DNA from: Vairimorpha ceranae
Lineage: Eukaryota; Microsporidia; Nosematidae
Direction of reading: 5' to 3'
DNA length: 64,000 nt
NCBI RefSeq assembly: GCF_000988165.1
Contig: NW_020169301.1
Coordinates: 62,001-126,000, forward strand
Made by a program: the position numbers and the translations under genes. This document shows, in pieces, positions 15,096 to 63,605 of this stretch (the stretch's first letter is position 1; each line of letters begins with the position of its first letter). Under the pieces are notes generated by a model. The model saw only the letters and a list, made by a program, of their open reading frames with translations. It was not told where the DNA came from and searched no databases.

Positions 15096-15605
15096 TTATT
15101 CTGGTTCACAACCACAACTCCAAACACCTTCTACCTTTTTACAGTCCATAATGGGCTTTCCTAATCTTTTATTAACTATGTTATGTGCTTTACATAGCCA
15201 CTGGACAAATTCGTCATGTGTGGCAACTTGTGGAGGATTTAAGCTTAACAGTCTTTGAAAATGTCCACAACATTCTGCACAGGGGAAAAGAGATGATAAA
15301 AGGTAAATAAATTGAAGTGTATCTTTTTTATGTTGTACTGTAGGAAATGCAGGATAAACAGCTGCCATGGTATGTAAAAGTGTCCATGTTGCTCTCCCCA
15401 ATCTATCTTTAACTTCCTTATTTGTTAATTTTTGATTATGAATTAGACCTAATTCACCTACTTTTGGTGAAATAGATTGTAAAACAGATTTTCCAAGTGA
15501 GTTGTCTGCATGTGTATGCGGGAAAAAATGCTGTTTTGCTAAATAAACAATCCATACACCCAATAAGATAATAAGTCCTCTTAATACTTTCTGCTCTTTG
15601 TTCAT
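15096..15605 (-). CDS. Erv2-like FAD-dependent sulfhydryl oxidase
   Basis: In this 169-residue protein a hydrophobic segment (about residues 8-23) suggests an N-terminal membrane anchor. The Erv/ALR domain follows: GRATWTLLHTMAAVYP, the redox centre C109-A-E-C112, and the FAD-binding HNIVNKRLGKP. C138 and C155 form the family's structural C-x16-C pair. The tail ends CGC (C164, C166), which is the shuttle cysteine pattern of yeast Erv2 in the ER rather than that of mitochondrial Erv1. An ER oxidase passing disulfides to PDI would fit the PDI family at 48.7-58.1 kb. A mitosomal Erv1 role is the alternative. It lies downstream of, and convergent with nothing on, the plus strand at 14.9-15.1 kb. 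Confidence 0.88.
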   Translation of the reverse strand: MNKEQKVLRGLIILLGVWIVYLAKQHFFPHTHADNSLGKSVLQSISPKVGELGLIHNQKLTNKEVKDRLGRATWTLLHTMAAVYPAFPTVQHKKDTLQFIYLLSSLFPCAECCGHFQRLLSLNPPQVATHDEFVQWLCKAHNIVNKRLGKPIMDCKKVEGVWSCGCEPE

Positions 15606-42940: not shown

Positions 42941-42965
42941 AAAAGGGGAAAAAATTAATAAAAAA

Positions 42966-43131
42966 ATGCACAAAGTGCCAGAGATCTATAAAAAATAGTG
43001 ATTATGCAAGCACATCTCCTATTTTACATCTCTACTTTTCTAAATATTAACTCCTTGCGGATATGTCAGGTGTTAAACTGACTAGAACAGATACTACACT
43101 TGATCAAAGCCGATAACTTTGAGAGCGAGGG
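42966..43131 (-). ncRNA. U2 spliceosomal RNA
   Basis: On the minus strand the sequence TTTGATCAAGTGTAGTATC and then TGTTCTAGTCAGTTTAACA are near-exact U2. Stem I pairs TCAAAG with CTTTGA around TTATCGG; the branch-site binding sequence GTAGTA is at 43092-43097; stem IIa pairs GTCAG with CTGAC. Further 3', an AT-rich segment around 43040 could hold the Sm site, and a GCAC-TTT-GTGC hairpin near 42970 may be the last stem. The 5' end is set at the CCTCGC after ACCCC; the 3' end is approximate. Confidence 0.9.
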
Positions 43132-45450: not shown

Positions 45451-45506
45451 TTAAAGGGTATTTCCTTATTATGCCGCTTATATTTTTTTTATTTTTTAGT
45501 CCCCCA
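45451..45506. promoter_or_regulatory. 56-base divergent promoter (unknown gene / HMG-box gene)
   Basis: TTAAAGGGTAT on the left gives CCC on the minus strand; TAGTCCCCCA on the right lies directly before the HMG-box ATG. Confidence 0.7.
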
Positions 45507-46121
45507 ATGGCTGTAAGATCTGCTTCAAAAGAACTTAAAAAAAAGGCTCCTAAGAAGCTTAAAGATTTAAATGCACCGAAGGCTCCTCTGACACCTTATT
45601 TAAAATGGGGTCAAGAACAAAGAGAAAAAGATCCAGAAATCAAATCATTACCGGTTGGTCAACAAGGAAAGAAGCTTAGTTTGATGTGGCAAAATGTTAG
45701 TGATGAAATAAAAGAAAAATACAAAAGTGTTTACCAGAAGGAAAAAGAAGCTTACTTAAAAGAATTTGAGGACTACAAGAAAACTGATAGTTATAAAGAA
45801 TGGTTTAAACAAAAAGAAGCATTATCAAAAGAAGATGGATCTACCGGGAAAAGAAAGAAAAGAAGTGCACAGAGTGCATATAATGTTTATTTTAAGGAAG
45901 AATATCCAATTATGGCTAGTAGTATGAATACTGATGGAGAAAGTAAGCCTTCTATGAAAGACGTCACAGCAAAAGTAGCTGAAAAATGGAAGAATTTTAG
46001 TGATGCAGAAAAAGCGGCGTATCAGGAAAGAGCTGATGCTATAAATAAAGAGAAAAAGGAAGCAGAATTTATGTCTAAAGAAGAATCAAAGGAAGAAGAA
46101 GAAGATTCTGAAGATGAATAA
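45507..46121 (+). CDS. HMGB-type protein with two HMG boxes and acidic tail
   Basis: The longest frame starts at 45435, but the ATG at 45507 follows TCCCCC and gives 204 residues without the odd hydrophobic stretch. Box A (about residues 24-95) has APKAPLTPYLKWGQEQR and a WQNVSDEIKEKY core; box B (about 113-180) has RSAQSAYNVYFKEEYP and AEKWKNFSDAEKAAYQERA. The end is a run of acidic residues (EESKEEEEDSEDE), as in HMGB1. It is an abundant chromatin-bending protein, likely partnered by histones such as the H2B gene 1.3 kb downstream. Confidence 0.93.
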   Translation: MAVRSASKELKKKAPKKLKDLNAPKAPLTPYLKWGQEQREKDPEIKSLPVGQQGKKLSLMWQNVSDEIKEKYKSVYQKEKEAYLKEFEDYKKTDSYKEWFKQKEALSKEDGSTGKRKKRSAQSAYNVYFKEEYPIMASSMNTDGESKPSMKDVTAKVAEKWKNFSDAEKAAYQERADAINKEKKEAEFMSKEESKEEEEDSEDE

Positions 46122-47427: not shown

Positions 47428-47841
47428 ATGAATAAAGCACCAAAACAAAATACAGGTAAAGCGCCAATAAGTACTACACAAGTCGGAGATCTGGACAAAA
47501 AAAAGAAGAAGAAAATGTCTAATTTATGTTCTGGTATGCAATTCAAATCTGCAATAAAAAAGATTGCCAAGGATATTAATCCTGATCAAACAGTATTTTT
47601 AACTAGTCAGGCCATTGCTATTTTATGTGCTATTGCTTATGATATTGTTTCTACTTGTGGTGAAGTAGCCTCTGAGTTTTCTAAGAAAGTAAGTAAACAG
47701 ACTGTTGGTGCCGATGAAATTGTGGCCGCATTTGAAATTTTATTAAAAGGAGAATTAAAGAAATTAGCATTAAGAGAAGTACACACTTGTTTGTCCAAGC
47801 CAAGTGCACCATCTAAGCCTTCTAAATCCCTTAAAGATTAA
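47428..47841 (+). CDS. Histone H2B, divergent
   Basis: Of 137 residues, the first 35 form a Lys-rich tail. The histone fold follows with H2B spacing: FKSAIKKIAKDINPDQTVFLTSQAIAIL, then AYDIVSTCGEVASEFSKKVSKQTVGADEIVAAFEILLKGELKKLALRE, aligning with the H2B helices and the LLPGELAKHA block. The tail after it (SKPSAPSKPSK) is unusually long. Microsporidian core histones are known to be divergent. The ATG follows GACCCCCCA. Confidence 0.85.
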   Translation: MNKAPKQNTGKAPISTTQVGDLDKKKKKKMSNLCSGMQFKSAIKKIAKDINPDQTVFLTSQAIAILCAIAYDIVSTCGEVASEFSKKVSKQTVGADEIVAAFEILLKGELKKLALREVHTCLSKPSAPSKPSKSLKD

Positions 47842-48665
47842 TAAATAAAGGACTGTTTAAATATAATTATTTTTTTACATTGGAGATTTTGTATAATAAA
47901 GTACGCGATGCAAATACTAGTTGTTGTGTCTTTTAAGTTACTCACAAGTTTAAAGTTAAATTATGAAACGCTTATTTTAATTTAGACTGTTGTACTGACA
48001 AAGAATTTAAATTTTTGTTGTAACATTCATAAACGTGTGTATTTCTATGTTAAAGTTAAATATGTTTATAAATTAATCTTATAAACCAAGTTTATTCATA
48101 AAATATTAATTTTAACTGTTGTTGTTATTTTAATTAAGCAAATTTATTGATTAATGATTTGTTTATGTAAACATCTTTGCTGATCGTTTCATATCAATAC
48201 ATATTTCTTGAATGTAAAACCTCTTCTGTTGCAGACACTACTTTTGGCTGATAAAATAACTACAATGTCTACCCACAACAGTAACAAAACATTTTTTACG
48301 CTTTTAATAAATTTATCTATGTTGTATTACAGCAATTGAAAATAATAAATCAAAATTTAATTAGTTATTTTCTTATTCTTCTGTAATTCTGATGTGTTAA
48401 AATAAAAATAAATTTAAATGTGGTAAATTATACAAAAGTCTAACACTTGTTCTTATATTTTAGTTTATTATTTTACTAAATGTTAAATACTACGATCACA
48501 TTTGTAAAACGATCATCATATTACTTTTAAACATATCCTACGTAGAACTTAAAATTTTTTTTAATCTAAATGATTATCTTTTTTATTTATTCGTGCTTTA
48601 TTTTTTTATGATTAATTTAAAACATTTATACAGTTTTTTATAAATTAAAAAATATGTAATATTAC
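47842..48665. other. Intergenic gap
   Basis: About 820 bases, AT-rich, no recognised feature. Confidence 0.5.
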
Positions 48666-49181
48666 ATGTACTTCTACCTGCTCCTAATAAAAGTATCTTT
48701 ACAAGAAATTATAGATGACTGTGCTATCTATAAACAAGGATTGGTTCTATCAATGTATTATCATACAGAATGTACTTATTGTATGGAATATGAAAAAGTG
48801 TTAAAAATATTAGCCAATGAATCTGAAATGAAAGACATGCTGAAAATTCAAAAAGTAAATTGTGGTGTTTGTGATTGTGGACCGTCTAGTATAAAAGGGT
48901 TTCCTACAACAATTCTAAGAAACAATGGTACAGAGATCGGTAGAACGGTGGCAATGATGGATTTGAAAAAATTAAAATCTTTTATATTAAAAAAAAGTGG
49001 TAAAGAAAATGCGGGACATAAATTAACAAACGAAGAGGATAGCACAAGTTCAAAAGAGGAATTGCATGCTAAGACTATAAAAATTGTACCAGGCTCTTCT
49101 GACAATATTTATCCGATACGTTATGATCAAGATATGAAACCCATTTGTGTACCAATATGTGTGAGTAGAACTTGTAATTAA
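48666..49181 (+). CDS. Small secreted thioredoxin-like protein 1 (CTYC)
   Basis: The 171 residues begin with a signal peptide (MYFYLLLIKVSLQ). The thioredoxin fold is evident: LVLSMYYHTECTYC with the active-site C36-T-Y-C39, strand KVNCGVCDC, the cis-proline FPTTIL (P80) and a final helix. A second CxxC (C66, C69, with C71) lies just before the cis-proline loop, a feature shared with the other members of this cluster. After the fold comes a ~65-residue polar tail with a terminal Cys (RTCN). There is no ER-retrieval signal, so it may be secreted. It is the most diverged of three short tandem paralogs; the PDI at 56.7 kb is the longer relative. No CCC element precedes the ATG. Confidence 0.85.
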   Translation: MYFYLLLIKVSLQEIIDDCAIYKQGLVLSMYYHTECTYCMEYEKVLKILANESEMKDMLKIQKVNCGVCDCGPSSIKGFPTTILRNNGTEIGRTVAMMDLKKLKSFILKKSGKENAGHKLTNEEDSTSSKEELHAKTIKIVPGSSDNIYPIRYDQDMKPICVPICVSRTCN

Positions 49182-49649
49182 ATGTATTTATAAACTTTTA
49201 TAATTTCTTATTTTTTAAAAATTATGATTTCTCACTTTTATCTTGACAATTAATTTCTTAGATACTAATTGTTTAAATGTAAAAATTAAAGCAAAAGGGT
49301 TTGCATATGAGAAGCAACCAAGAATCTTTATGCCTGTTTTTAACATTTTTATTAATTTTGTATAAATTATAACAACTTTAATAAAATGCGCAATTATTTG
49401 CACTAAAAATGTCGTCATGGGTATTTTTAAACAACACAACCCAATGCATCTAGTAGAGCAAACGTGTTAACTTGAAGTTGTAAAAATTTTTAGGATTCTT
49501 AAGAAAAAAAAAATTATTAGAAGTGTATAAAAAATGAGGAGAAAGATTATTTGTATCAAAAAAATAAACTACAGACAAAAATACTAACCAGTAAAAAAAG
49601 TTCTTCTTACAATTCAAGCTAAATTAAAAACAATACAGTTTGCTAGAAA

Positions 49650-50930
49650 TATTTTTACTACCAATGTCGTAACAAAAATATAAATAATTATTACAATTTT
49701 AAAAAAATTAAATCATTATCCTGAAACTAAAAATCATGCGTTTTTGCAACTTTTTATTTTATAAATTTTATTATTTTAGTGTTGAGAGAAACGTATAATG
49801 ATAGCTTATTTTTAAATATTATTGATATTTTTATAATTGGAAACGATATTTTCTTTGACGTCACTTATTAAAAAGTCTTCATCTAAAAATATTTGACGAT
49901 TTGACTTTATTACACAAGTTTAACATTGAAATCTATCACAAATTTTTGATTTTTGTGTTACAAAACTACACAATTTTAAAACAAACTAACTTTAAAAAAT
50001 TAACTGTGACGTAGTAAATAATCTATCTTAAAATCGTTAAATTTTTGTTTTAAAAACTGATTATCTTAAAACCAAAATTGTTTTTGTGTATAAATTAAAA
50101 AAAATTACTGATTTTATGTTTGCTTTTCTGTTCTTAATTAAGTTATCTTACCAGTTAATTTTGGAAAATTGTAGTAGTGTACAGCCGGGACTAGTATTAT
50201 CTATGTATTATAGTCCAACATGTCCTCACTGTAAAAAATATGATCCAGTATTGACGGGTATAGCAAATAATGCTGCCGCAAAAGGAGTTCCAATTACGAT
50301 ACAAAAAGTCAACTGTGATATCTGTGACTGTGACAGTGTGAATGTCCTTAAAGTTCCTACAACGATTCTAAGAAATAATGGTGTTGAAATTGCCAGACAA
50401 AGCGGATTTATGGATTGTAAAACTGTCGGCTCATTTTTATCAAAAAATTTATGTGATGTAAATGGCCAGTTAATACCGAAAAATCAAAACAATACTAATG
50501 TATATGGATGGAGAAATAATAATATTGAACAGCCGTTACCAGTTGTACCAGAGACACCAACCAATGTTGTTCCAATAGGTGATTTACAAAAGAATCAACC
50601 GGCCTGTGCATTAGCTTCTAATTCAGGTACATGTAATTAAATTTTTATTTATCTTTGAGTTTATACAATCAAAATATAAATATATTAATATAAAATACAA
50701 TGAAAATAAATTTATTGAAATATCATTTATTAATGCTTTGGTTGCTTGAAAAATCTTTACCGTACTTGGGGGTTAAACATTTTCTCAACTGGCAACCAGC
50801 TTTATCTATTAGATACTCACAACATTAATTTATAAAGCGCAAAATCTATAAAGTAGTAATAATGATTCTAACAAATACAAATAGCATTTTATATAAATTT
50901 AAAATTCATCTTTGTGGTTAAAAAATTTTT
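49650..50930. repeat. Duplicated block A (thioredoxin-like gene 2 with flanks)
   Basis: This block, including about 450 bases upstream and 290 bases downstream of the coding region, matches 52515-53760 throughout. The gene-free stretch 49182-49649 to its left shows nothing I recognise. Confidence 0.85.
50116..50640 (+). CDS. Small secreted thioredoxin-like protein 2 (CPHC)
   Basis: The frame opens at a GTG (50086); the ATG at 50116 starts a proper signal peptide (MFAFLFLIKLSYQ), 174 residues. The active site is C36-P-H-C39, the strongest of the short paralogs. C67, C70 and C72 form VNCDICDC, and the cis-proline is P81 (VPTTIL). Other cysteines at 101, 113, 164 and 173 would be mature lumenal or extracellular residues. 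The Pro/Asn-rich tail ends SGTCN. It is about 75% identical to protein 3 and lies in the duplicated block A. A disulfide isomerase or reductase acting outside the cytosol is the likely role. Confidence 0.88.
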   Translation: MFAFLFLIKLSYQLILENCSSVQPGLVLSMYYSPTCPHCKKYDPVLTGIANNAAAKGVPITIQKVNCDICDCDSVNVLKVPTTILRNNGVEIARQSGFMDCKTVGSFLSKNLCDVNGQLIPKNQNNTNVYGWRNNNIEQPLPVVPETPTNVVPIGDLQKNQPACALASNSGTCN

Positions 50931-51328
50931 TAATTAAAATTTATTTTCATATAATTATTTTTGACTTTTTCATCAATTTATTTATACAAAAATTTAAGGA
51001 TAAAGAATTGTAACTTAATTAAAGATCTTTATAGTATCAAGCAGATGTTTGATAAATCCCAGCGGACAGTCTCTCATGCTGAGAAAATACTCTATAATAT
51101 TCAAAAGTAGTTTTTCTTTTAAATCAATACAAGTTTTATTTAAAGTTTATTAATTAATATAGTAATTGTAAACATCCTTATGTTTGTTGTTTTACTGTTT
51201 CATCTGATTTTCCATTTAAGGTTCGCCTTCTTTTTAAAATTTTTATTTATTGAAAAATAAATTCTAAAAAATACAAGATCATTTTTGATTAGCCAAAAAT
51301 AAAAAAGACATGTAGTCTATATACCACA
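50641..51328. other. Downstream part of block A and unassigned sequence
   Basis: Contains the conserved non-coding element at 50765-50835 (see findings) and, at about 51,015-51,110, a less AT-rich stretch with a short open frame lacking a start (IKDLYSIKQMFDK...), possibly a gene remnant. Confidence 0.4.
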
Positions 51329-51592
51329 CAAATATATCTTTAAACTTAATTTATGGGCAACTAAGGCCTTCTGCAGTTGGTTTTCTTTCGTTTTTATTTC
51401 TATTTCTTTTATATTTATTGTACAGAGCTAAAAAGTCGGCCGTAAAAAATATATTTTTATGGGTAATAATGTTTGCCAGTGTAGTGTATTGTTTTTATAA
51501 GTGCTATACTGCGTTTAAAAATTTTTACAGTATTGAAATAAATTATGAAGCGCCTATAGAAAATGAAACGCTTGTTACAAATCAAAATTGAT
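51329..51592 (+). pseudogene. 3' fragment of an AAAP amino-acid transporter gene
   Basis: This matches the last ~85 codons of the intact transporter at 60157-61473 at close to 90% DNA identity and stays in frame to the same stop (ETLVTNQN). In frame upstream there is a TAG at 51315-51317 and no homology, so the gene is cut off. Confidence 0.88.
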
Positions 51593-51699
51593 GTTCTTAC
51601 AACGATTAATCATTTAAATATCAAATTTTATTTTAGAAATGAAAAATAGTCACAAATTAAATTAACTTTACTGTATTGTTATTCCGATTTAATGAAAAC

Positions 51700-52343
51700 A
51701 AAATTTTTTTTTTTTCTCTAAAAAAATTTTTAATTTTTAACTTCAACATAAAACAAATAAATTTTAACAATTTGGCTTTTTTAAGTATATAAAATGTAAT
51801 ACAAATGAATAATAAATTATAAAAAAAATAATCTTGTTTAATTGGTTTTTGTACATATAGAATTACATCTTGTTAAATTTAAATTTTTTTAAACACTAAT
51901 CCTAAAGCTGCAAAATTAAAAACCCGCTTCGGGTTTGAAATAAATAATTTTAACTTATCGTATCAGATTTACATATTATATATTTTTTAGATTTCTTTAC
52001 ACATTTTTTGTACAAAGATATAAAAACTTGATAAATCACATTTTGTAAAATTTATACATTAATGACACAGAAATATAATCTTAATAAAAGTTACTTAAAG
52101 ACTTATGTTTTAAATAATGGTGTCGTCAATTTATTTTACAACAAATTTTTTAGTGTGAATTGTTTAAGGCGCAATTCATGCGTAAACCTTAAAGTTGGCC
52201 TAAAAAGCGAGATTAAAATGTTTAATAATTCCCAATCTATTTTCAAAATTTTGAATTTAAAAAATGCTTATTGTATATCTTTTTATATTAAATTTTTAAT
52301 AAGTTCAACTAAAAAGCAAAATTTATTTAATGAAGCTTTTTAA
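51700..52343. repeat. Non-coding repeat R, copy A
   Basis: Matches 62941-63605 over about 640 bases with scattered indels. It follows the transporter fragment, as copy B follows the intact transporter. The 93-codon frame inside it (52062-52343) is not conserved in copy B. Confidence 0.8.
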
Positions 52344-52362
52344 TATTGTTTTTATTTACACT

Positions 52363-52525
52363 AAAGTACTCAGATCCCTCAGTTCACCCGTTAGCTTGCT
52401 TTCCATTAGTTCAATTTCACCAATGCCGCTGCCAACTTCTTCAAGTCCCTTAAATAGTCCAGAAAGACCTCTCCATTGTTTTCTTAAAACTAGAGCTTGA
52501 ATGTAGGATTCCGTGATATAAAAAA
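52363..52525 (-). pseudogene. Coding remnant of unknown origin
   Basis: A stop-free frame on the minus strand reads ESYIQALVLRKQWRGLSGLF, then KGLEEVGSGIGEIELMESKL, to a TAA at 52363. The stretch is much richer in G and C than its surroundings and lies exactly between repeat R copy A and duplicated block B. It has no start codon. It looks like the C-terminal end of a real gene trapped in a rearrangement; family not recognised. Confidence 0.45.
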
Positions 52526-53760
52526 ATATAAATAATTATTACAATTGTTAAAAAATTTAATTATTTAACTTAAACCAAAAATCATGAATTTATTCAATTT
52601 TTGATTTTATTTTATATTATTTTGGTGTTAAAGGAAACTGTAAATAGAAGTTATTTTTAATATTATTTATCTTTTAAAAACATTGTTTTTGACGCCATTC
52701 ATTTAAAAAAGTTGACAGCTAAAATTTTTTGTCAATTTGATTGTAATAAATTAGTTTAACATTGAAAGCTATCACAAATTTTTGATTTTTGCGTTACAAT
52801 TGCACAAATTAATTAAATAAACTACTTCTTAAAAATTAACAAGGACGTAGTAAATAGTTTTTTTTAAAATCATTTATTTCTGTTTTAAAAGCTGATTATC
52901 ATAAAACCTAAATTTTTTTTGTGTATAAATTAAAAAAAATTACTGATTTTATGTTTGTTTTTCTATTCTTAATTGAGTTATCTTGCCAGCTAATTTTGGA
53001 AGATTGTGGTAGTATGCAGCCAGGTCTAGTATTAACTGTGTATTACAAACCAACATGCCTTAGTTATCAAAAATATGAACCAGTGGTGACTGATTTAGCA
53101 AATAGTGTTGCCGCTAAAGGAGTTCCAATTACGATACAAAAGGTCAATTGTGATATTTGTGACTGTAACAGTATGAATGTCTTTGAAGCTCCTACAACGA
53201 TTCTAAGAGATAATGGCGCCGAAGTTGCCAGACAAAGGGGATTTATGAATTGTAAAACTATCAACTCATTTTTATCAAAAAATCTATGCAATGTAAATAG
53301 CGAATTAATACCGAAAAATCAAAACAATACTAATGTATATGGATGGAGAACTTATAATATTGAACAGCCTTTACCAGCTATACCAGAAATACCAACCAAT
53401 GTTATTCCAATATGTGAGTTACCAAAGTGTCAATCAGCTTGCTCATTAGCTTTAACTTCAGGTACATGTAATTAAATTTTTATTTATCTTTAATTATACT
53501 ATCAAAATATAAATAATATTAATATTAAATACAAAAAAAAGAATTAATTAAAAATGCATTTATAAATGCTTTAATTGCTTAATAAGTCTTCACCATGCTT
53601 GGGGGTTTAGATCTTTTCTCAACTGGCAACCAACGTTATCTACTAGATACTCACAACATTAATTTATAGAGTGCAAAATTCCAAAGGTAGCAATAATGAT
53701 TTTTTACAAATACTAAATAACATTTTATATAGATTTAAAATTTAATTTGTCGTTAGTTGG
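52515..53760. repeat. Duplicated block B (thioredoxin-like gene 3 with flanks)
   Basis: Partner of block A (49650-50930). Coding and non-coding parts are both aligned, which shows a duplication of a ~1.25-kb unit. Confidence 0.85.
52951..53475 (+). CDS. Small secreted thioredoxin-like protein 3 with broken active site (CLSY)
   Basis: The ATG at 52951 (rather than GTG at 52921) starts a signal peptide (MFVFLFLIELSCQ), 174 residues. It is a paralog of protein 2 along its whole length. The active site reads C36-L-S-Y39, so the second catalytic cysteine is lost, while the second CxxC (VNCDICDC) is fully kept. The cis-proline context is changed to EAPTTIL. New cysteines appear in the tail (ICELPKCQSACS). 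The frame is intact, so it is probably expressed, either as a binding or isomerase-only protein or on the way to decay. Confidence 0.82.
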   Translation: MFVFLFLIELSCQLILEDCGSMQPGLVLTVYYKPTCLSYQKYEPVVTDLANSVAAKGVPITIQKVNCDICDCNSMNVFEAPTTILRDNGAEVARQRGFMNCKTINSFLSKNLCNVNSELIPKNQNNTNVYGWRTYNIEQPLPAIPEIPTNVIPICELPKCQSACSLALTSGTCN

Positions 53761-53822
53761 TTTTTAAATTAAAACCAATGTTTATAAAGTTTTTCTATGA
53801 CATTTTCGTCCTTTTCTTTATT

Positions 53823-55236
53823 TAGCTTGTTTTAAAAAAAAATGACACATAAATTTTACCAATATAAATTGATCAAACAAATTATCTGGCTCAATAAGTT
53901 TATGTAAAAAAAGTATTTAAAAAGCTTTATTTAGTTATATTTTTCTTAACTGATGTAAAAGTTTGATTTTCCGTTTTTTATAAAAAAGCGTTTCAAAACA
54001 ATGACTATTTTTTTAAAGAAAAGTGATCTGTAAATTTTCCCTAGAATCTTACTTATTTTACAATTTTTTTAAATCCCTGATGCAACTTACGCCTGAATTG
54101 GATTAAAAATTGTTGTCTTTAATACAAAAAATAGTGCAAGCTAAAATAGCCAAACAAATTGGTGTATCTAAGAGTACAAAAAAATTATACTACTTGTGCA
54201 TTTAAGAGGAAATAGGAGACCAAAGACTCTTTTTAAGGATAATATTAATACTATTTTGGCTTTAAATAAAAAACCTAAAACTTCTTTGAGAAAAATGTCG
54301 GTTGAGTTTTTAGAAAGAAGTAAAAAAGTGATATCTTATTCAACTATAAAAAGGACACTAAAATATTATGGTTTTGATGCATTCCTGGCAACAAAAAAGC
54401 CTGCCCTGTCAAAAAAATTTATTTTAGCAAGGAAAGAAAATTCTTAAAAAATTATTTGCATGTCTGATGTTACTACAAAGAGCCAATTTTTTTTCGATGA
54501 AAGTAAATTTAATCTCATTGAAACTAAATATAGATTTTTTCATTAAAATAAGCCGTGTACAGATATTTTTCTAAAAAAATTGTTGCTACAGTAAATACGG
54601 AGGAGAACTGTAATAGTATGAAAATGTTTCTAATATCATGAAGTAGAGAATCTGATTTTTATAGATGGTATTGTGGGTTCTGTGGCAAATGTAGATATTC
54701 TGGCTCATTTTTGCGCCCGACAGCCAATCAAACGAGAATGAAAATATTTATTTTTCAACAAGATAATGTTCTGAAACATACATCAAGACTTGCCAAGAAC
54801 TACTTTATTGAAAAAAAAATCGAGCTACTTTCTTGGCCACCACAATCTCTTGATTTAAACCTAAATGAGACACTTTGAGCTATCAAAAAACAGAAATTAT
54901 CTTAATTTTTCATAAAAACTAAGGAAGAGTAAAAAGCTGTTGTACAAGCTGTATGAATTTTAATAACAGTAGAAACCTGTCAAAAACAGGCGTTAAGTTT
55001 CAAAAAAGATCTATCAAGTTTTGGGTCTATGCACATGGTATAATTTTTAAATGTAGTCATGTTTTTAAACACTTTTTTATATAAAACAAAAAATCAAACT
55101 TTTTACGACAGCTAAGAATAATATAAACAAAAAAAGCTCTCTAAAGAACTTTTTTACATAAACTTATTAAATCAGATATTTTTATTGATCAATTTATACC
55201 AGAAAATTTATGTTCCGTTTTTTTTAAAGCAGGCTG
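53823..55236 (+). mobile_element. Tc1/mariner element with ~180-base terminal inverted repeats
   Basis: The ends 53823-54005 and 55056-55236 are inverted copies of each other at about 75-80% identity, with CAGC-type tips (right end TA-CAGCCTGC; left end diverged). A TA follows the right end. Inside is a decayed transposase on the plus strand. Confidence 0.88.
54130..54945 (+). pseudogene. Broken Tc1/mariner transposase
   Basis: Across several frameshifts and stops the plus strand shows IAKQIGVSKST (helix-turn-helix), an intact 83-codon frame at 54196-54447 (GNRRPKTLFK...SLRKMSVEF...YSTIKRTLKYYGF), then FFFDESKFNL (first Asp), and IFQQDNVLKHTSRLAKNYF and SWPPQSLDLNLNETLWAIKK (second Asp and the third acidic residue). 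It is non-functional as it stands. Confidence 0.88.
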
Positions 55237-55621
55237 TATATTAGTATTATAAGATGTTGTAACTTAACTTTAAGCTACTACGTAATATACATTATTTGTA
55301 AATTATTCTATAAAAAAGTTTTTAAGACAACATAACCAAGATTTTGATTATAATTAACACAAAGAACTTTTTAAAGCTATTTAAACATTAATTTTAAATA
55401 AAACATAAACTACCTGCCAAGAGACTTTATTGTAAATATAGACGTGATTAGTAAAAATTTAGATTGCACAAATTTAATCCTTAGATATCTTTTAAATTTA
55501 TCACAAATAATAAAGAGAGTTAAAACATAAACATAGTGTGCTATTTCGTTACAACCTGCATAATTTATTTAAAAGTACATTAGAAAAATATTAACGTGTA
55601 CCTATGAGCGAATACATCCAC
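55237..55621. other. Intergenic gap
   Basis: AT-rich; nothing recognised. Confidence 0.5.
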
Positions 55622-56290
55622 TTAAAATCTTTTAACAGCTCGTACATATGGATTATCTTTATCAACAACTTTAAACCCCTTATTTTCAAGAAAGTTAATA
55701 ACAGAAGGACGAAGAGATTGTGAATTTCCATCACGCCCAGTAATTAAATTGATTTCTTTAGGACAATACATTTGAATGTAATCACTAAGAAACATAAGTG
55801 CTTCTTTTGTATACAATCCGTGTAAGTCAATATTTTTGGCATTAAGTAACGATTTAGATAAAATCATCAAAGCACGTCTTCTATTTAGTTTATCAAGTTC
55901 TTCATACATTTGCTGTATTTCTTCTGACTGATATTCTAATACTCTCTTGTCCTTACAAAAATTTAATTTATTTTTTAGCAGTTTAATTTGAGAGTATAAC
56001 TCTTCTGCTTTGCGCCTATCGATGTCACCATCATAAACATCTGTTTCCTGCTTATAGAACAACTCGGGATAATAAAGATCCTTTTTTATCTGTTTTTGTA
56101 TTTTTTTGACTTGTGTGATATCTTTTAAATTAACATTGATTCCTTTGTAATTATTATCTAAAATTTTAGTAATTATAATATTCATATCTTCAGATGATAC
56201 AAAAAGATTTTCTACGTCTTCATCATTTAAAAATGGAAATATTTCTTTTATAAACGACTTTTCTTTTTCAATTTTAGCCAAATTAAACAT
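55622..56290 (-). CDS. CUE-like plus Smr domain protein
   Basis: The 222 residues begin with a three-helix CUE-like segment (FIKEIFPFLNDEDVENLF...MNIIITKILDN), then a helical middle with DxxxRRKAEEL, and a C-terminal Smr domain: NIDLHGLYTKEALMFL, INLITGRDGNSQSLRPSVINFLENKGF. The DLHG and TGRG-like (TGRDGNS) motifs are the nuclease elements. CUE and Smr together occur in Cue2/N4BP2, which cut mRNA on stalled ribosomes in no-go decay, and YPL199C is another Smr relative. ATG directly after AACCC. Confidence 0.82.
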   Translation of the reverse strand: MFNLAKIEKEKSFIKEIFPFLNDEDVENLFVSSEDMNIIITKILDNNYKGINVNLKDITQVKKIQKQIKKDLYYPELFYKQETDVYDGDIDRRKAEELYSQIKLLKNKLNFCKDKRVLEYQSEEIQQMYEELDKLNRRRALMILSKSLLNAKNIDLHGLYTKEALMFLSDYIQMYCPKEINLITGRDGNSQSLRPSVINFLENKGFKVVDKDNPYVRAVKRF

Positions 56291-56662
56291 GGGTTAAAAA
56301 ATTAGTTAAATTCAAAAGAAGTATTAACGACTTATTGCTAAATAAGCTACCAAATATATTTTACGTATTTAAAAATAGAACTATTAATAAAAGACAAAGC
56401 ATTAAAAAATTAAGATTTAGATTAGTTTAATATATAATAAAAACGGTGCAGAGATTATATTAATCTATAATATTAATGTCTAATCACTTAATAGTACTTT
56501 TTTCAATAAACATTATGTTACAATAATAAATAAATGTTAGAAATATATTTTATTTAATTTATAATTTAATTAATTAATATATTTATATATTAATTTTTTT
56601 AAAACATGTAAATTTGAAACAAAACAATTAAAACTATAAATTTAACTTTTTTATAAATAAAC
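56291..56662. other. Divergent intergenic gap
   Basis: About 370 AT-rich bases; nothing besides the CCC before the Smr gene. Confidence 0.5.
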
Positions 56663-58144
56663 ATGTTGTTAATATTTCTATTACACTTTAGTTTGCAGGT
56701 TGTAGTCGAACAATGTGCAGTTGAAAGTTCAGGATTTGTTCTTTTAGACTACTATCAAAAATGGTGTCCTGCCTGCCAAAAGCTTGATCCCGTGCTTGAA
56801 GAAATCGATAATACACTTGAAAGAAATGGTTATGATATTACTGTTCAAAAAGTTGATTGTAACAATTGCGAATTTAATAAAGAAGATATCAAGTCATTTC
56901 CGACAGTTGTTCTAAAAAACAATGGTAACGAAGTAGCGAGATTTTCTGGTTACAAATCATATAAAGAACTGGGTGAGTTTTTATCTACGCACTCTGATGT
57001 TGATAAATCCATTTTCGATAATCACATAGAAAGTAAACCAGCAGAATTACTTGAACTAATCGATTCAGATATGTATCAAGGACTTGATGGCCCATGGATT
57101 GTTTACTTTTACTACAAGGATCCTTCAAAATTTGAATCTACTATGTTAGAATTAGAAAAAATTTATAACGGAAAAATCAACTTCGGTAAAATAAGTTATG
57201 AACAATCTAAAGATTTAATACATCAATATAACATAAAAAGTTATCCTGCAATTTACGGTATTTTTAATGGTCTTATGGTCCCTTTTCTAGAGGCAGTAAA
57301 TTTAAACGAATTGTCAAAATTTGCAGATAAATTAATTGCGCCTAGTTTTAGAAAACTAAAATTAGCTGACTTTAAACAAGAAATACAACTACTGGAACAC
57401 GGTGAACCACTTTATCTTGTATTTCATACAAATCAATCAAAAGCTAATCAATATTTTGCTGAACATGCTCACAAATATAAATTTAAAACAAAAATTTTTA
57501 ATACTGATGATGCAGCATTATTTTCGATGGCTTCGATATTTCCGTCATCGAAAACAGAAAAGCAAAATCTTACCGATTCTGACGCAATAAAATTAGGAGT
57601 TTATAAAAACGGTCGATTTTATGAATATAAAGGAGATATTTCTAATGAAAATGATATTGCCGCATGGTTATTTCATACACATTTCAGCTACGTAACAGAG
57701 ATCAAAAGCTCAACTTTTACTTCTATCTTTAATGGATATAAGCCTGCCATGGTTTTATTAACAAAGGGTGAACAATTTATAAAAGAATTTAATGAATTTT
57801 CTGCAGACAGACATTTAGGGGCTCCTTTTATACACATCCTATTTGCTGTTTTAAATACTAATGAATACGAAAATTTTGTTCCATCATTGCTTCCAAAAAT
57901 GACCGTGCCCAATCTTGTTGTTTATGATCCAACTACTAAACAGTTTAGACATACGGACATGAATTTAACAAAAGAAACGTTCAAAGAAAGCGCTATGAAA
58001 ATGTTAAAAATATATGAAGAAGGTAAGTTACAGCTATATCCTCGTCCGCCGTCTCATAAGAAATATTATTTGCTTGCAGTAGGATTTGTTATATTAGGTG
58101 CGCTATTTATAGCAAAATCAAGTAAGAACAAAAAAAGAGTCTAA
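56663..58144 (+). CDS. Membrane-anchored protein disulfide isomerase with KKXX ending
   Basis: This is a 493-residue PDI-family protein of the ER. A signal peptide (MLLIFLLHFSLQ) leads into a thioredoxin a-domain with C35-P-A-C38 and the cis-proline P80 (SFPTVVL). C66 and C69 (VDCNNCEF) form the cluster-specific second CxxC. Two or three further thioredoxin-like folds follow without CxxC (for example ISYEQ...IHQYNIKSYPAIYGIF, about residues 175-205). A membrane span at about 468-485 is followed by SSKNKKRV, whose last four residues fit the dilysine KKXX retrieval signal. So this is a one-active-site, type I membrane PDI, like TMX-type enzymes. It is the likely parent of the three short paralogs. 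Confidence 0.92.
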   Translation: MLLIFLLHFSLQVVVEQCAVESSGFVLLDYYQKWCPACQKLDPVLEEIDNTLERNGYDITVQKVDCNNCEFNKEDIKSFPTVVLKNNGNEVARFSGYKSYKELGEFLSTHSDVDKSIFDNHIESKPAELLELIDSDMYQGLDGPWIVYFYYKDPSKFESTMLELEKIYNGKINFGKISYEQSKDLIHQYNIKSYPAIYGIFNGLMVPFLEAVNLNELSKFADKLIAPSFRKLKLADFKQEIQLLEHGEPLYLVFHTNQSKANQYFAEHAHKYKFKTKIFNTDDAALFSMASIFPSSKTEKQNLTDSDAIKLGVYKNGRFYEYKGDISNENDIAAWLFHTHFSYVTEIKSSTFTSIFNGYKPAMVLLTKGEQFIKEFNEFSADRHLGAPFIHILFAVLNTNEYENFVPSLLPKMTVPNLVVYDPTTKQFRHTDMNLTKETFKESAMKMLKIYEEGKLQLYPRPPSHKKYYLLAVGFVILGALFIAKSSKNKKRV

Positions 58145-60156: not shown

Positions 60157-61473
60157 ATGAGTGATTCTTATAGTAGAATATCTGCGGTTTTTTACATCAT
60201 AAATTCAATGCTGGGGACAGGGATTAATTTTATGCCGGCAACTTTTAACAATTCTGGAATAATACTTGGATTTGGTATGCTATTTTGCGTATCTTGTTTA
60301 ACTGCCTTTTCTATTTATATTCTTTTTAGAGTGGCTATAAAATTTCAAGGTGAATACGAACACATTACATTTGCGAATCTTGCTAACCCACCTTATTTAA
60401 GAAGAATGATAGATTATTCAATGGTTGCAGCATCATTGTTTTCCGCTATAGGTTTTCAAAAATTTGCAAAAGAATTATTCACATTATTTATTTCGGAATT
60501 TTTGCCCGATAAAACACCTATTTTTTACAAATATTTAGAAATAACCATTTTACTTGTGATAACAATAATATTTACAGGATTAGCAATGATAAAAAAAATA
60601 GGAAATTTAAAAATACTGTCTAAATTGTCCGTTTTTTGTGTTACATCCTTGATGATAGTTTTAACAGTACTAAATGTTTTTCTGCCCACTTCAAAGATCA
60701 GAAATTTAAAAGGGACCGACAATAAAATGAACTATACTTTCAGCCTATCGTGGTTTATTATGTCAATGTATACACAACCAAATATACCGATACTGTTTCC
60801 GCATCTAGAAGATAAATCACAAACTAATTTAATTTTTATTAGTGCTATAGCTGCTTTTTGTGGTTTTTTGATTTATGGGATGGCTGGATTTTTAGGGTTT
60901 AATCTTTTAGGACAACACATTGGAACAAGTGATATTATGAGAATTTTTTTAGATAATAATTCATCGTTAAATAATTATCTGGCATCAAATAGTGATATTA
61001 ATAGTACTATATCTAGAATTTTGTGGTATATGACAAAATATCAAGGTATCTGCGCCATAATAATACTAATGGTTGGTTTTCCATTGAGAATAGCACCAGC
61101 TACTAGATATTTTAAAAATTTTTTTTCTGATAGAATAAAAAATACCGATGGGGTACATAATATAATAGTTATTATTGAAATGTTTATAATTACAATGGTC
61201 AATCTAATTCCAAATATATCTTTGAACTTAATTTATGGGCTGCTGGGACCTTCTGCAGTTGGCTTTCTTTCATTTTTATTTCCATCCCTTCTATATTTCT
61301 TGTACAGAGATAAAAAGTCGGCTGTAAAAAATATATTTTCATGGATAATAATGCTTGCAAGTGTAGTGTATTGTTTTTATGGGTGCTATACTGCGTTTAA
61401 AAATTTTTGCAGCGTTGAAATAAATTATGAAGCGCCTATAGCAAAGGAAACGCTTGTTACAAATCAAAACTGA
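60157..61473 (+). CDS. AAAP-family amino-acid transporter (AVT-like)
   Basis: This 438-residue protein has about 11 membrane spans. The start SAVFYIINSMLGTGINFMPATFNNSGIILG is the classic first helix of AAAP/SLC38-type carriers (N-x-x-x-GxG-I-x-x-x-P). WFIMSMYTQPNIPILFPHLED is the middle conserved block. Such transporters import amino acids from host cytoplasm or move them across internal membranes; microsporidia depend on this since they lack most amino-acid synthesis. The ATG follows CACCCCCACTTTA. A 3' fragment at 51.3 kb and a 5' fragment at 63.74 kb show that it belonged to a tandem array. Confidence 0.92.
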   Translation: MSDSYSRISAVFYIINSMLGTGINFMPATFNNSGIILGFGMLFCVSCLTAFSIYILFRVAIKFQGEYEHITFANLANPPYLRRMIDYSMVAASLFSAIGFQKFAKELFTLFISEFLPDKTPIFYKYLEITILLVITIIFTGLAMIKKIGNLKILSKLSVFCVTSLMIVLTVLNVFLPTSKIRNLKGTDNKMNYTFSLSWFIMSMYTQPNIPILFPHLEDKSQTNLIFISAIAAFCGFLIYGMAGFLGFNLLGQHIGTSDIMRIFLDNNSSLNNYLASNSDINSTISRILWYMTKYQGICAIIILMVGFPLRIAPATRYFKNFFSDRIKNTDGVHNIIVIIEMFIITMVNLIPNISLNLIYGLLGPSAVGFLSFLFPSLLYFLYRDKKSAVKNIFSWIIMLASVVYCFYGCYTAFKNFCSVEINYEAPIAKETLVTNQN

Positions 61474-61789
61474 TGTTCTTATAACGATTAAACATTTAAA
61501 TATCAAATTTTGTTTAAAAAATCAAAAATATTTAGAGATCAAATTTACTTTACTATATTGCTATACTAGTGCCAAATAAGGATTGTTCACTTTACAATTA
61601 CAAATTTTAAAATATAACAAGTTGTTGCCATTTCCAAAGAGCATACAAAAATTTTTAGCCGTTTAAATCGCTAATTTAATTATTTTGAAAAACAACATCT
61701 TTATCAGTTAAATGAAAAAAAAATGGCAAAAAAAAAAATTTAAATAAGAATTATCATATCTATTTTTTACTCTTATTAGTTCACTGCAT
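61474..61789. other. Downstream flank of transporter
   Basis: The first ~90 bases match the flank of the transporter fragment at 51593-51680; homology then stops, marking the left edge of an insertion. Confidence 0.5.
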
Positions 61790-62345: not shown

Positions 62346-62940
62346 CTTGCCCAATGTTTTTTTTCAAAATATGCTTTTTAGACAAAATGATCTTAACATG
62401 CAGTCATACCACGCAATCCTACTTTATACCAATTTTCTCGAATACATCGAACAAATAATTATTTTTTGTTCGTTTTTTAAGTTTTACAAAAGCTTAATGC
62501 TGCCAATTTGTGTATCAGCATTTTTTTTCAAATAGGATATATCATTACTATTAAGTAATGAAGGTCCAACAAAACCCGATTTTTTTACATTTTATTTGTT
62601 TTCTAAATTTTTTTTTGTGTTTGGACACTGTTGACTGGCTTATCGAGAACTTTTTTGAAATTTGTTTTTATTATGTGCCTATTTAAAATAAGCCTAATTT
62701 TCGGATTTTTACTTACAAAAAATTTTTTTTTGCCAAAAAAAAATTCCTTTTTTTAACCACCTAAAATACAAATTTCTGTCAATACCAAAAAGGTTTTAAA
62801 AAAACAATGTTCTCAATATATTCTATAATTTTTTAAAAAGTAAAATAATTGGTTGTTGTAACTATAAAATGTATGATTACTATACTATTATAATATTCCT
62901 TTTTTTGCCGCTACTTTTTTAGTTAATCAAAATAATAATC
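62346..62940. other. Right part of insertion
   Basis: T-rich, broken sequence between the Tc1/mariner relic and repeat R copy B. The 62-codon frame at 62347-62535 lies antisense to the likely transposase 5' end and is not a gene. Confidence 0.45.
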
Positions 62941-63605
62941 ATTTTTTTATTTCTCTAAAAAAAATTTTAATCTTAATACAAATCAAACATAAAACAAATA
63001 AAATTTGAACAATTTGTCTTCTGTAAATATAAAAAATAAAATACAAATGAATTATTAAACATTCAAAATAGAAAAATTAATCTTGTTTAATTGTTTTTTG
63101 TTTAAAGAGAATTACTTCTTCTAATATTTAATTTTTTTTAAACACTAATCCTAAAGCTGTAGAATTAAAAATCTGCTTTTGTTTAAATAAAAAAATTTTT
63201 ACTTATCGTATCAAATTTACATCTTATATAATCTTTAGGTCTCTTTACACATTTCTTTTCTTTTTTGCACAAAGATATATTTATTTTGAAAAATCAAATT
63301 TTGTAAATTTATACATTTATGACGCAAGAAATATAATCTTTATAAAAGTCACTTAAAGGCTTATCTTTTTAATAATGGTGTTAAAAATCATTTTACAACA
63401 AATTTTATGGTCTCACTAAAAAATACTTTAGAGTAAATTATTTATGAGGCGGTTTATGCGTAAACTTTGGATTTGGTCTAAAAAACTAGCTTAAAATGAT
63501 TAGTAATAGGAAATCCATTTTCAAAGTTCTAATTTAGAAAGGCAAATATATATTTGTTCATATTAAAGTTTATGTAAGTTCAACTAAAATATTATTCATT
63601 AACAA
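62941..63605. repeat. Non-coding repeat R, copy B
   Basis: Matches 51700-52343. Landmark words are AACACTAATCCTAAAGCTG and CTTATCGTATCAAATTTACA. Position between an intact transporter and a transporter 5' fragment suggests R is the spacer of an old tandem array. Confidence 0.8.

What the first reader, a model, noticed from the sequence alone, without database searches (positions are those of the whole stretch)
48666..58144. Tandem family of secreted thioredoxin-like proteins derived from a membrane PDI, all with an additional CxxC
Three short secreted paralogs (CTYC, CPHC, CLSY) and one PDI (CPAC, C-terminal span, KKXX) lie within 9.5 kb. All four have a second CxxC (V-x-C-x-x-C) just before the cis-proline loop, where ordinary PDI a-domains usually have no such pair. 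The short forms add a tail ending in Cys-Asn and lack ER retrieval, which suggests export to the spore wall, polar tube space or host. This could be a lineage-specific redox system.
Basis: partly seen in the sequence, partly recalled or inferred. Interest (0 to 1): 0.78.

Follow-up and report, generated by a model that had tools for sequence, protein, structure and literature searches.

The report
Secreted thioredoxin-like gene cluster, Vairimorpha ceranae
A honey-bee parasite carries a membrane-anchored disulfide-handling enzyme and, close by, three short, apparently secreted relatives of it; their odd extra cysteine pair looks like a reworked version of a pair already known in ordinary enzymes of this type, so it is a modest new variant rather than a new kind of system.

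Summary
Three short thioredoxin-fold genes (CTYC, CPHC, CLSY; ending Cys-Asn) and one membrane PDI-like gene (CPAC, C-terminal span, KKRV) lie at 48666-58144, each with V-x-C-x-x-C before the cis-proline position. The genome is Vairimorpha (Nosema) ceranae by its diagnostic rRNA primer sites. The short forms group apart from the PDIs (100/100), together with one from a metagenome record.

The claim that ordinary PDIs lack such a pair is wrong in part. Of seven a-domains displayed, five (yeast Pdi1p, another PDI, three of TXNDC5) carry C-x6-C at this spot. Here the loop is two residues shorter, a middle cysteine has been added, and an N-terminal cysteine is invariant with it (12 of 12 distinct sequences). 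I read this as a remodelled non-catalytic disulfide cluster, not a second active site.

All four genes have a TATA box at -27/-28. Between the CPHC and CLSY copies there is no indel in 522 coding nt against 12 in the flanks, so CLSY is probably a kept single-cysteine form. Export to spore wall or polar tube is plausible but unproven. Verdict: new variant of a known kind.

The parts
48666..49181 (+). Short form 1, 171 aa, CTYC active site, C66-x-x-C69-x-C71, tail cysteines C161, C165, C170, ends TCN
   Evidence: (Pfam Thioredoxin 28.5 bits)
50116..50640 (+). Short form 2, 174 aa, CPHC active site, C67-x-x-C70-x-C72, extra C101 and C113, tail C164 and C173, ends TCN
   Evidence: 39.2 bits; thioredoxin fold; block pLDDT 64-86 over residues 21-110
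52951..53475 (+). Short form 3, 174 aa, CLSY (second active-site cysteine lost), C67-x-x-C70-x-C72, tail cysteines C155, C160, C164, C173, ends TCN
   Evidence: 26.6 bits; dN/dS 0.60 against form 2; 0 indels in 522 nt
56663..58144 (+). Membrane PDI-like protein, 493 aa: catalytic a-domain (CPAC, C66-x-x-C69), then three thioredoxin-like modules without cysteines (my reading of a weak model), helix 466-486, KKRV end
   Evidence: (mean pLDDT 63.4)
56858..56869 (+). Codons of the second CxxC of the PDI (C66-C69)
50314..50331 (+). Codons of C67-x-x-C70-x-C72 of short form 2
48639..48645 (+). TATAAAT at -27 of short form 1
50089..50095 (+). TATAAAT at -27 of short form 2
52924..52930 (+). TATAAAT at -27 of short form 3
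56635..56641 (+). TATAAAT at -28 of the PDI gene
49674..50867 (+). Block carrying short form 2, matching 52522-53701 in four pieces of 89-300 nt at 76-86% (spacing 2834-2848)
52522..53701 (+). Duplicate block carrying short form 3

Best explanation
A Vairimorpha/Nosema-clade branch of the PDI family working in the secretory pathway of V. ceranae. The parent is an ER membrane protein: one catalytic thioredoxin domain (CPAC) facing the lumen, three non-catalytic thioredoxin-like modules, a membrane span and a KKXX retrieval signal. A single-domain, signal-led version without the span or retrieval signal arose once and was then duplicated locally. The short forms should make or reshuffle disulfides on proteins leaving the cell, most likely the disulfide-linked polar tube and spore-wall proteins. 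The extra CxxC is a remodelled form of the non-catalytic cysteine pair known at the same place in PDI a-domains and human Trx1: the loop is two residues shorter, a middle cysteine was added, and an N-terminal cysteine lies beside it. It most likely forms one or two structural or regulatory disulfides beside the active site. The CLSY copy, with only the attacking cysteine left, should hold clients as mixed disulfides rather than turn them over. Shown by sequence: family, grouping of the short forms, cysteine pattern, hydrophobic C-terminal stretch and retrieval motif, promoter motif and kept frame. Inferred: compartment, disulfide pairing, activity, clients, and that the short forms came from the PDI.
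Against: No expression, localisation or redox data were reachable. Signal peptides were judged only by hydropathy and are short. The short forms have M or V where the window's PDI has D29, and three of four lack the tryptophan before the active site; in known enzymes this weakens turnover (recalled), so they may be poor catalysts. Silent excess between forms 2 and 3 is weak (p = 0.049). The window's PDI has 5 cysteines in all, so a neat set of disulfide pairs leaves one thiol over. C19 lies in a block of low confidence (pLDDT 51), and in the full PDI model residues 11-37 and 67-78 are under 50. Some polar tube proteins dissolve in SDS alone.
Confidence: 0.6

Rival explanations
1. The second CxxC is a true second redox centre: it passes electrons between the active site, the N-terminal cysteine and, in the short forms, the cysteine-bearing tail, making a self-contained relay in the secretory pathway.
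For: C18/C66/C69 are invariant in 12 of 12 distinct sequences while the third cysteine comes and goes. The short forms carry 2-4 cysteines in the tail, the penultimate one in 4 of 4, and the tail of form 2 is predicted without structure (pLDDT under 50 from 114). CLSY lost its resolving cysteine but has two tail cysteines that form 2 lacks. The canonical oxidase ERO1 was not found above cut-off in the held assembly.
Against: The known pairs at this place are structural or regulatory (for Trx1; Pdi1p and ERp57 recalled). Nothing shows exchange between the two pairs. The membrane PDI has the pair but no cysteine tail.
Confidence: 0.2
2. The short forms are host-directed secreted effectors that act on bee gut cells.
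For: Signal-like N-termini without retrieval signals; few relatives found (3 records); secreted thioredoxins are reported from a liver fluke and a plant-pathogenic fungus (PMC8131638, PMC10102666, listing only).
Against: No host-targeting evidence. The same features fit spore-wall or polar-tube maturation, and work inside the ER without retrieval is not excluded.
Confidence: 0.2
3. The short copies, above all CLSY, are decaying duplicates without function.
For: CLSY lost an active-site cysteine; dN/dS between forms 2 and 3 is 0.60 with p = 0.049; the locus also holds a truncated transporter copy and a degenerate transposon.
Against: 0 indels in 522 nt against 12 indel runs in the flanks; no stop codon (random changes leave the frame open in about 7% of runs at 39 changes and 1% at 77); TATA motifs kept; public records P0010 and P0011 hold forms 2 and 3 with one residue changed each over the shared length.
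Confidence: 0.12
4. C19, C67, C70 and C72 form a metal site rather than disulfides.
For: Four cysteines expected near each other in all four short forms and three PDIs.
Against: Five of eight PDIs lack the fourth cysteine; the secretory pathway is oxidising (general knowledge).
Confidence: 0.04

Closest known systems
Yeast Pdi1p a-domain (non-active-site pair IDCTENQDLC)
   Same: Thioredoxin-fold PDI domain with a cysteine pair after the third strand, before the cis-proline
   Different: C-x6-C, loop two residues longer, CGHC active site; the N-terminal cysteine is outside the aligned stretch and so not compared
TXNDC5 (ERp46)
   Same: Best solved-structure match by sequence for PDI and short form; all three domains carry a C-x6-C pair here
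   Different: Three catalytic CGHC domains; soluble (recalled)
Human thioredoxin-1 C62/C69
   Same: Second, non-active-site pair at the ends of a short helix (PMC9313168, passages); same place by recall
   Different: Cytosolic; C-x6-C; regulatory
Membrane PDIs TMX3 and Eps1p (architecture recalled)
   Same: N-terminal catalytic domain, further modules, one C-terminal span, lysine-based retrieval signal; a TMX3-like protein is a weak profile hit and Eps1p a weak match of the short form
   Different: Four thioredoxin-like modules in my reading of the model, CPAC, extra CxxC
Single-domain plant PDI-A (poplar; PMC5375154)
   Same: A PDI with one catalytic thioredoxin module (abstract start)
   Different: Active site WCKHC (passage); no sequence comparison was made here
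ERp44 / Eug1p (CxxS-type PDIs, recalled)
   Same: Like CLSY, one active-site cysteine left; ERp44 is among the nearest folds of the PDI model
   Different: CLSY is a short single-domain protein; the trapping role is inferred

Membership tests
Thioredoxin fold (Pfam PF00085) | Score above curated cut-off | tested here: met
   28.5, 39.2, 26.6, 76.8 bits against 23.5
PDI family | CxxC active site in a thioredoxin domain | tested here: met
   CPAC, CPHC, CTYC: 3 of 4; CLSY does not meet it
PDI family | Entry into the secretory pathway | tested here: inconclusive
   Hydrophobic N-termini rank 1, 4, 9 and 13 of 45 window ORFs by best 8-residue hydropathy; no signal-peptide predictor at hand
PDI family, ER-resident | ER retention or retrieval signal on the long protein | tested here: met
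   KKRV; KKxx in 7 of 8 clade PDIs
PDI family, ER-resident | ER retention or retrieval signal on the short forms | tested here: not met
   All three end TCN; they are filed as thioredoxin-fold relatives of the PDI, not as ER-resident PDIs
PDI family | Oxidase, reductase or isomerase activity | not testable with these tools
   Needs recombinant protein
Canonical a-domain non-active-site pair (Pdi1p type) | Cysteine pair between third strand and cis-proline | tested here: met
   C66/C69 or C67/C70
Canonical a-domain non-active-site pair (Pdi1p type) | C-x6-C spacing | tested here: not met
   C-x2-C, or C-x4-C to the third cysteine
TMX3/Eps1-type membrane PDI | C-terminal span with dilysine end | tested here: met
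   Helix 466-486 in the model, KKRV; no span predictor was run
TMX3/Eps1-type membrane PDI | Orthology by sequence | tested here: inconclusive
   Only a weak hit to a TMX3-like protein (8.9e-6, 18% of query)

The most novel reading that the evidence does not exclude
In an ER without a recognisable ERO1 (in the held assembly), this clade evolved a-domains with a four-cysteine satellite centre (C19, C67, C70, C72) beside the active site. The exported short forms carry this centre plus a cysteine-tipped flexible tail, so that they work as self-contained relays or covalent cross-linkers of the polar tube and spore wall, with CLSY as a dedicated trapping form.
Probability: 0.12. Interest if true: 0.72.

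Novelty: new variant of a known kind. Interest (0 to 1): 0.4.

Why it matters
Disulfides are held to stabilise the microsporidian polar tube (PMC10229552, passages), and I found no paper on which enzymes set them: the search for PDI with microsporidia and Nosema listed three papers, one of them on iridoviruses, and the passages of the other two do not treat this family. A clade-limited PDI with exported single-domain offshoots would be a direct candidate, testable by spore proteomics and recombinant redox assays, in a parasite of honey bees.

Tried and rejected
Rejected: that a cysteine pair is new to this place. The alignments show C-x6-C in 5 of the 7 a-domains displayed.

Rejected: that the ENA records P0010 and P0011 prove expression. 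Both start with ten extra residues, which correspond in the window to a GTG upstream of the ATG, as a table-11 gene caller would give, so they may be metagenome contigs. They show only that the frames stay open in other samples.

Rejected: that the transporter fragment between forms 2 and 3 is the relic of one block duplication with the PDI. It is 88% identical to its source over 354 nt, too young for a split at about 40% protein identity (inference).

Rejected: ERO1 at C82 (16.7 bits, below cut-off). The frame there reads to me as a multi-span protein with an HExxH motif; it was not scanned further. The ERO1 search had no positive control: it rang in 0 of the 14 control genomes. So did the Erv/Alr family, which nevertheless was found here.

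Led nowhere: viral-contig scan with A2 (49 pattern matches, none a relative). Structure models gave no coordinates, so cysteine distances could not be measured. The full PDI model is weak (mean pLDDT 63.4), its a-domain above all, and its listed fold matches have TM-scores of about 0.2-0.3. Paper searches for the Pdi1p pair and Trx1 pair gave listings, of which I opened PMC9313168, PMC5375154 (nothing on extra cysteines in the passages); a search for Cys85/Cys92 of ERp57 found none; PMC12561257 holds none of five terms tried. Three searches for secreted thioredoxins of Nosema/Vairimorpha showed nothing on this family in their listings (none opened). One for ERO1/Erv2 with microsporidia likewise; PMC5731054 passages add only general background. 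The profile search shares 5-residue words, so E. cuniculi and other microsporidia may be missed. The N. apis primers were not searched.
Full report
What is there. The window holds four genes of one family: three short ones at 48666-49181, 50116-50640 and 52951-53475 and a long one at 56663-58144. All four score above the Pfam Thioredoxin cut-off. Active sites read CTYC, CPHC, CLSY and CPAC. Each has V-x-C-x-x-C, the two cysteines 14 and 11 residues before the proline of the cis-proline loop; in the three short forms it is C-x-x-C-x-C. The short forms end in TCN; the long one ends KKRV after a hydrophobic helix (residues 466-486 in the model).

Whose genome. Both cores of the 218MITOC primers, used to tell Nosema (Vairimorpha) ceranae from N. 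apis, occur once each in the held assembly, facing each other over 206 bp. With their 5' tails of 7 and 6 nt this gives 219 bp; the published product is 218 or 219 bp (passages of PMC5797446). The N. apis primers were not searched. The assembly holds 4.56 Mb in 116 contigs, less than the 7.86 Mb published draft (abstract start of PMC2685015), so absences are soft.

How special the cluster is. The Pfam thioredoxin model rings at 8 places in the assembly, 7 of them over the cut-off. Five are in this cluster; the other three are a phosducin-like protein (my reading), a 441-residue PDI and a 112-residue thioredoxin. The short-form query itself finds only the four genes of the cluster. The 441-residue protein matches solved PDIs chiefly over the parts after the first catalytic domain (best hit: residues 81-422 on 113-463 of a 507-residue PDI), so it looks like the canonical PDI without that domain; its active site is CSYC and it has only one cysteine in the loop, no pair. 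The extra CxxC is thus not general even within this genome.

Relatives. The membrane PDI is found in V. necatrix, V. bombi, N. granulosis, N. bombycis and three unnamed sources, 8 sequences with the window's own. A profile of these returned, besides the eight, two distant animal proteins, one of them already listed. C18, C35, C38, C66 and C69 are invariant in 8 of 8. One of the eight, V. necatrix P0002, lacks a stretch after the proline; I kept it in the alignments but left it out of the tree. Short forms were found as two records that differ from forms 2 and 3 by one residue each over the shared length (P0010, P0011) and one from a JGI metagenome contig, P0012 (150 aa, CSAC, ends VCS), 49% identical over 75%. 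P0012 has no counterpart in the held assembly, so it probably comes from another species, which would make the short family older than this cluster. In a tree of 12 rows (t1-t3, P0012, seven PDIs, the 441-residue PDI) the four short forms and the seven PDIs fall on two sides of a branch with 100/100 support. P0010, P0011 and P0002 were not in the tree; the outgroup branch is very long and four of nine inner branches are open, so the root is not settled. That short forms derive from the PDI rather than the reverse is inferred from the wider spread of the PDI. Forms 2, 3 and P0012 also share C101 and C113, absent from form 1.

The cysteine pair. In one search the profile of the eight PDIs is aligned with solved structures; five chains are displayed, two of them repeats of the same molecules. 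Seven a-domains remain: five carry C-x6-C starting at the cysteine equivalent to C66 (TXNDC5 three times, yeast Pdi1p a, the PDI of 29te/9tpa a), two carry none (both a'), and none has C-x2-C. HMMER opens a two-residue gap in the loop and puts the partner cysteine opposite profile position 71. That is the third cysteine of C-x-x-C-x-C, present in 7 of 12 distinct sequences: all four short forms and P0003, P0004, P0008. So the pair C66/C71 looks like the known pair with a shorter loop, the middle cysteine (C69) is the addition, and in five PDIs the known partner is gone. The other invariant cysteine, C18/C19, sits just after the signal region. The model of short form 2 has block means of 71-86 from residue 21 to 110 except 64 for residues 71-80, and 47-51 before residue 21. 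It shows C19 just after a two-residue first strand; the third strand ends at 66 and a helix 67-70 holds the pair. Most listed alignments to thioredoxins start at model residue 11-15 against chain residues 1-4 and end at 112-114 against 106-109, while the active-site cysteines are offset by only four from E. coli thioredoxin (C36 against C32, recalled), so about six residues are missing in the first-helix region. In this fold the first and third strands are parallel neighbours (recalled), so C19 should lie beside C67/C70. No coordinates were available, so this is inference. The full PDI model does not help: residues 11-37 and 67-78 are under pLDDT 50.

Are the short genes alive? TATA[AT]A[AT] begins at -27, -27, -27 and -28 of the four genes. 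Among all 45 ORFs of at least 90 aa in the window 8 have it at -25 to -32, these four included; the intergenic chance is 3.3%. Forms 2 and 3 share their upstream sequence by descent and do not count twice. The published N. ceranae analysis found the same peak near -27, with a motif at -25 to -32 in 12.5% of genes against 4.1% in random sequence (PMC2685015 passages). Forms 2 and 3 differ by 77 substitutions with dS 0.24, dN 0.14, ratio 0.60; the excess of silent change is weak (p = 0.049), and in the stretch of codons 73-102 the ratio exceeds 1. But the coding part has no indel in 522 nt while the flanks, about 720 nt, have 12 indel runs. I conclude that both frames have been kept, CLSY included, with moderate confidence. 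No transcript or protein evidence was seen.

Mechanism. Shown: family, active-site letters, cysteine pattern, hydrophobic C-terminal stretch, KKXX, grouping of the short forms. Inferred: lumenal placement, export of the short forms, thiol-disulfide exchange, clients. The polar tube resists detergents and acids but is solubilised by DTT or 2-mercaptoethanol, and PTP1 and PTP2 are rich in cysteines, though other tube proteins dissolve in SDS alone (PMC10229552 passages). That makes secreted disulfide handlers plausible there. Against strong catalysis: the short forms have M or V where the window's PDI has D29, and three of four lack the tryptophan before the active site. The oxidant is open: ERO1 does not ring above its cut-off and the only Erv/Alr oxidase found lies in this same window (15096-15605). 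By sequence it is nearer Erv1/ALR than Erv2 (118 and 105 bits against 79); N. ceranae Erv1 was listed among mitochondrial proteins in 2009 (PMC2685015 passage), and I could not settle its place.

Verdict. A real, apparently lineage-limited branch of the PDI family with an unusual but explicable cysteine arrangement: a new variant of a known kind.

Noticed in passing
window 15096-15605 (-): The only Erv1/Alr-family sulfhydryl oxidase found in the held assembly, with a hydrophobic N-terminus and a C-terminal CGC; no ERO1 above cut-off and no CHCH (Mia40-type) domain rang.
   Followed up: partly
L008:619-1944: A 441-aa PDI that aligns with the later domains of canonical PDI but seems to have lost the first catalytic domain; CSYC active site, no extra pair.
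   Followed up: partly
window 51329-52314: A copy of the 3' end of the amino-acid transporter at 60157-61473 and of DNA downstream of it (51329-51682 matches 61211-61564 at 88%; 51689-52314 matches 62923-63589 at 76%), lying between short forms 2 and 3.
   Followed up: partly
window 53852-55209: A degenerate transposon with 166-nt inverted ends (72% complementary) and fragments that look like a Tc1/mariner transposase (recalled motif); three further nearly full-length copies at 76-77% in the assembly.
   Followed up: partly
window 45471-46121 (+): An HMG-box protein whose listed start gives a hydrophobic N-terminus unlikely for a nuclear protein; a downstream ATG (MAVRSASKELKKK) may be the true start.
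   Followed up: no
window 42956-43129 (-): U2 spliceosomal RNA, 66.4 bits.
   Followed up: no
window 47428-47841 (+): A small lysine-rich protein with a sub-threshold histone-fold match, next to the HMG-box gene.
   Followed up: no
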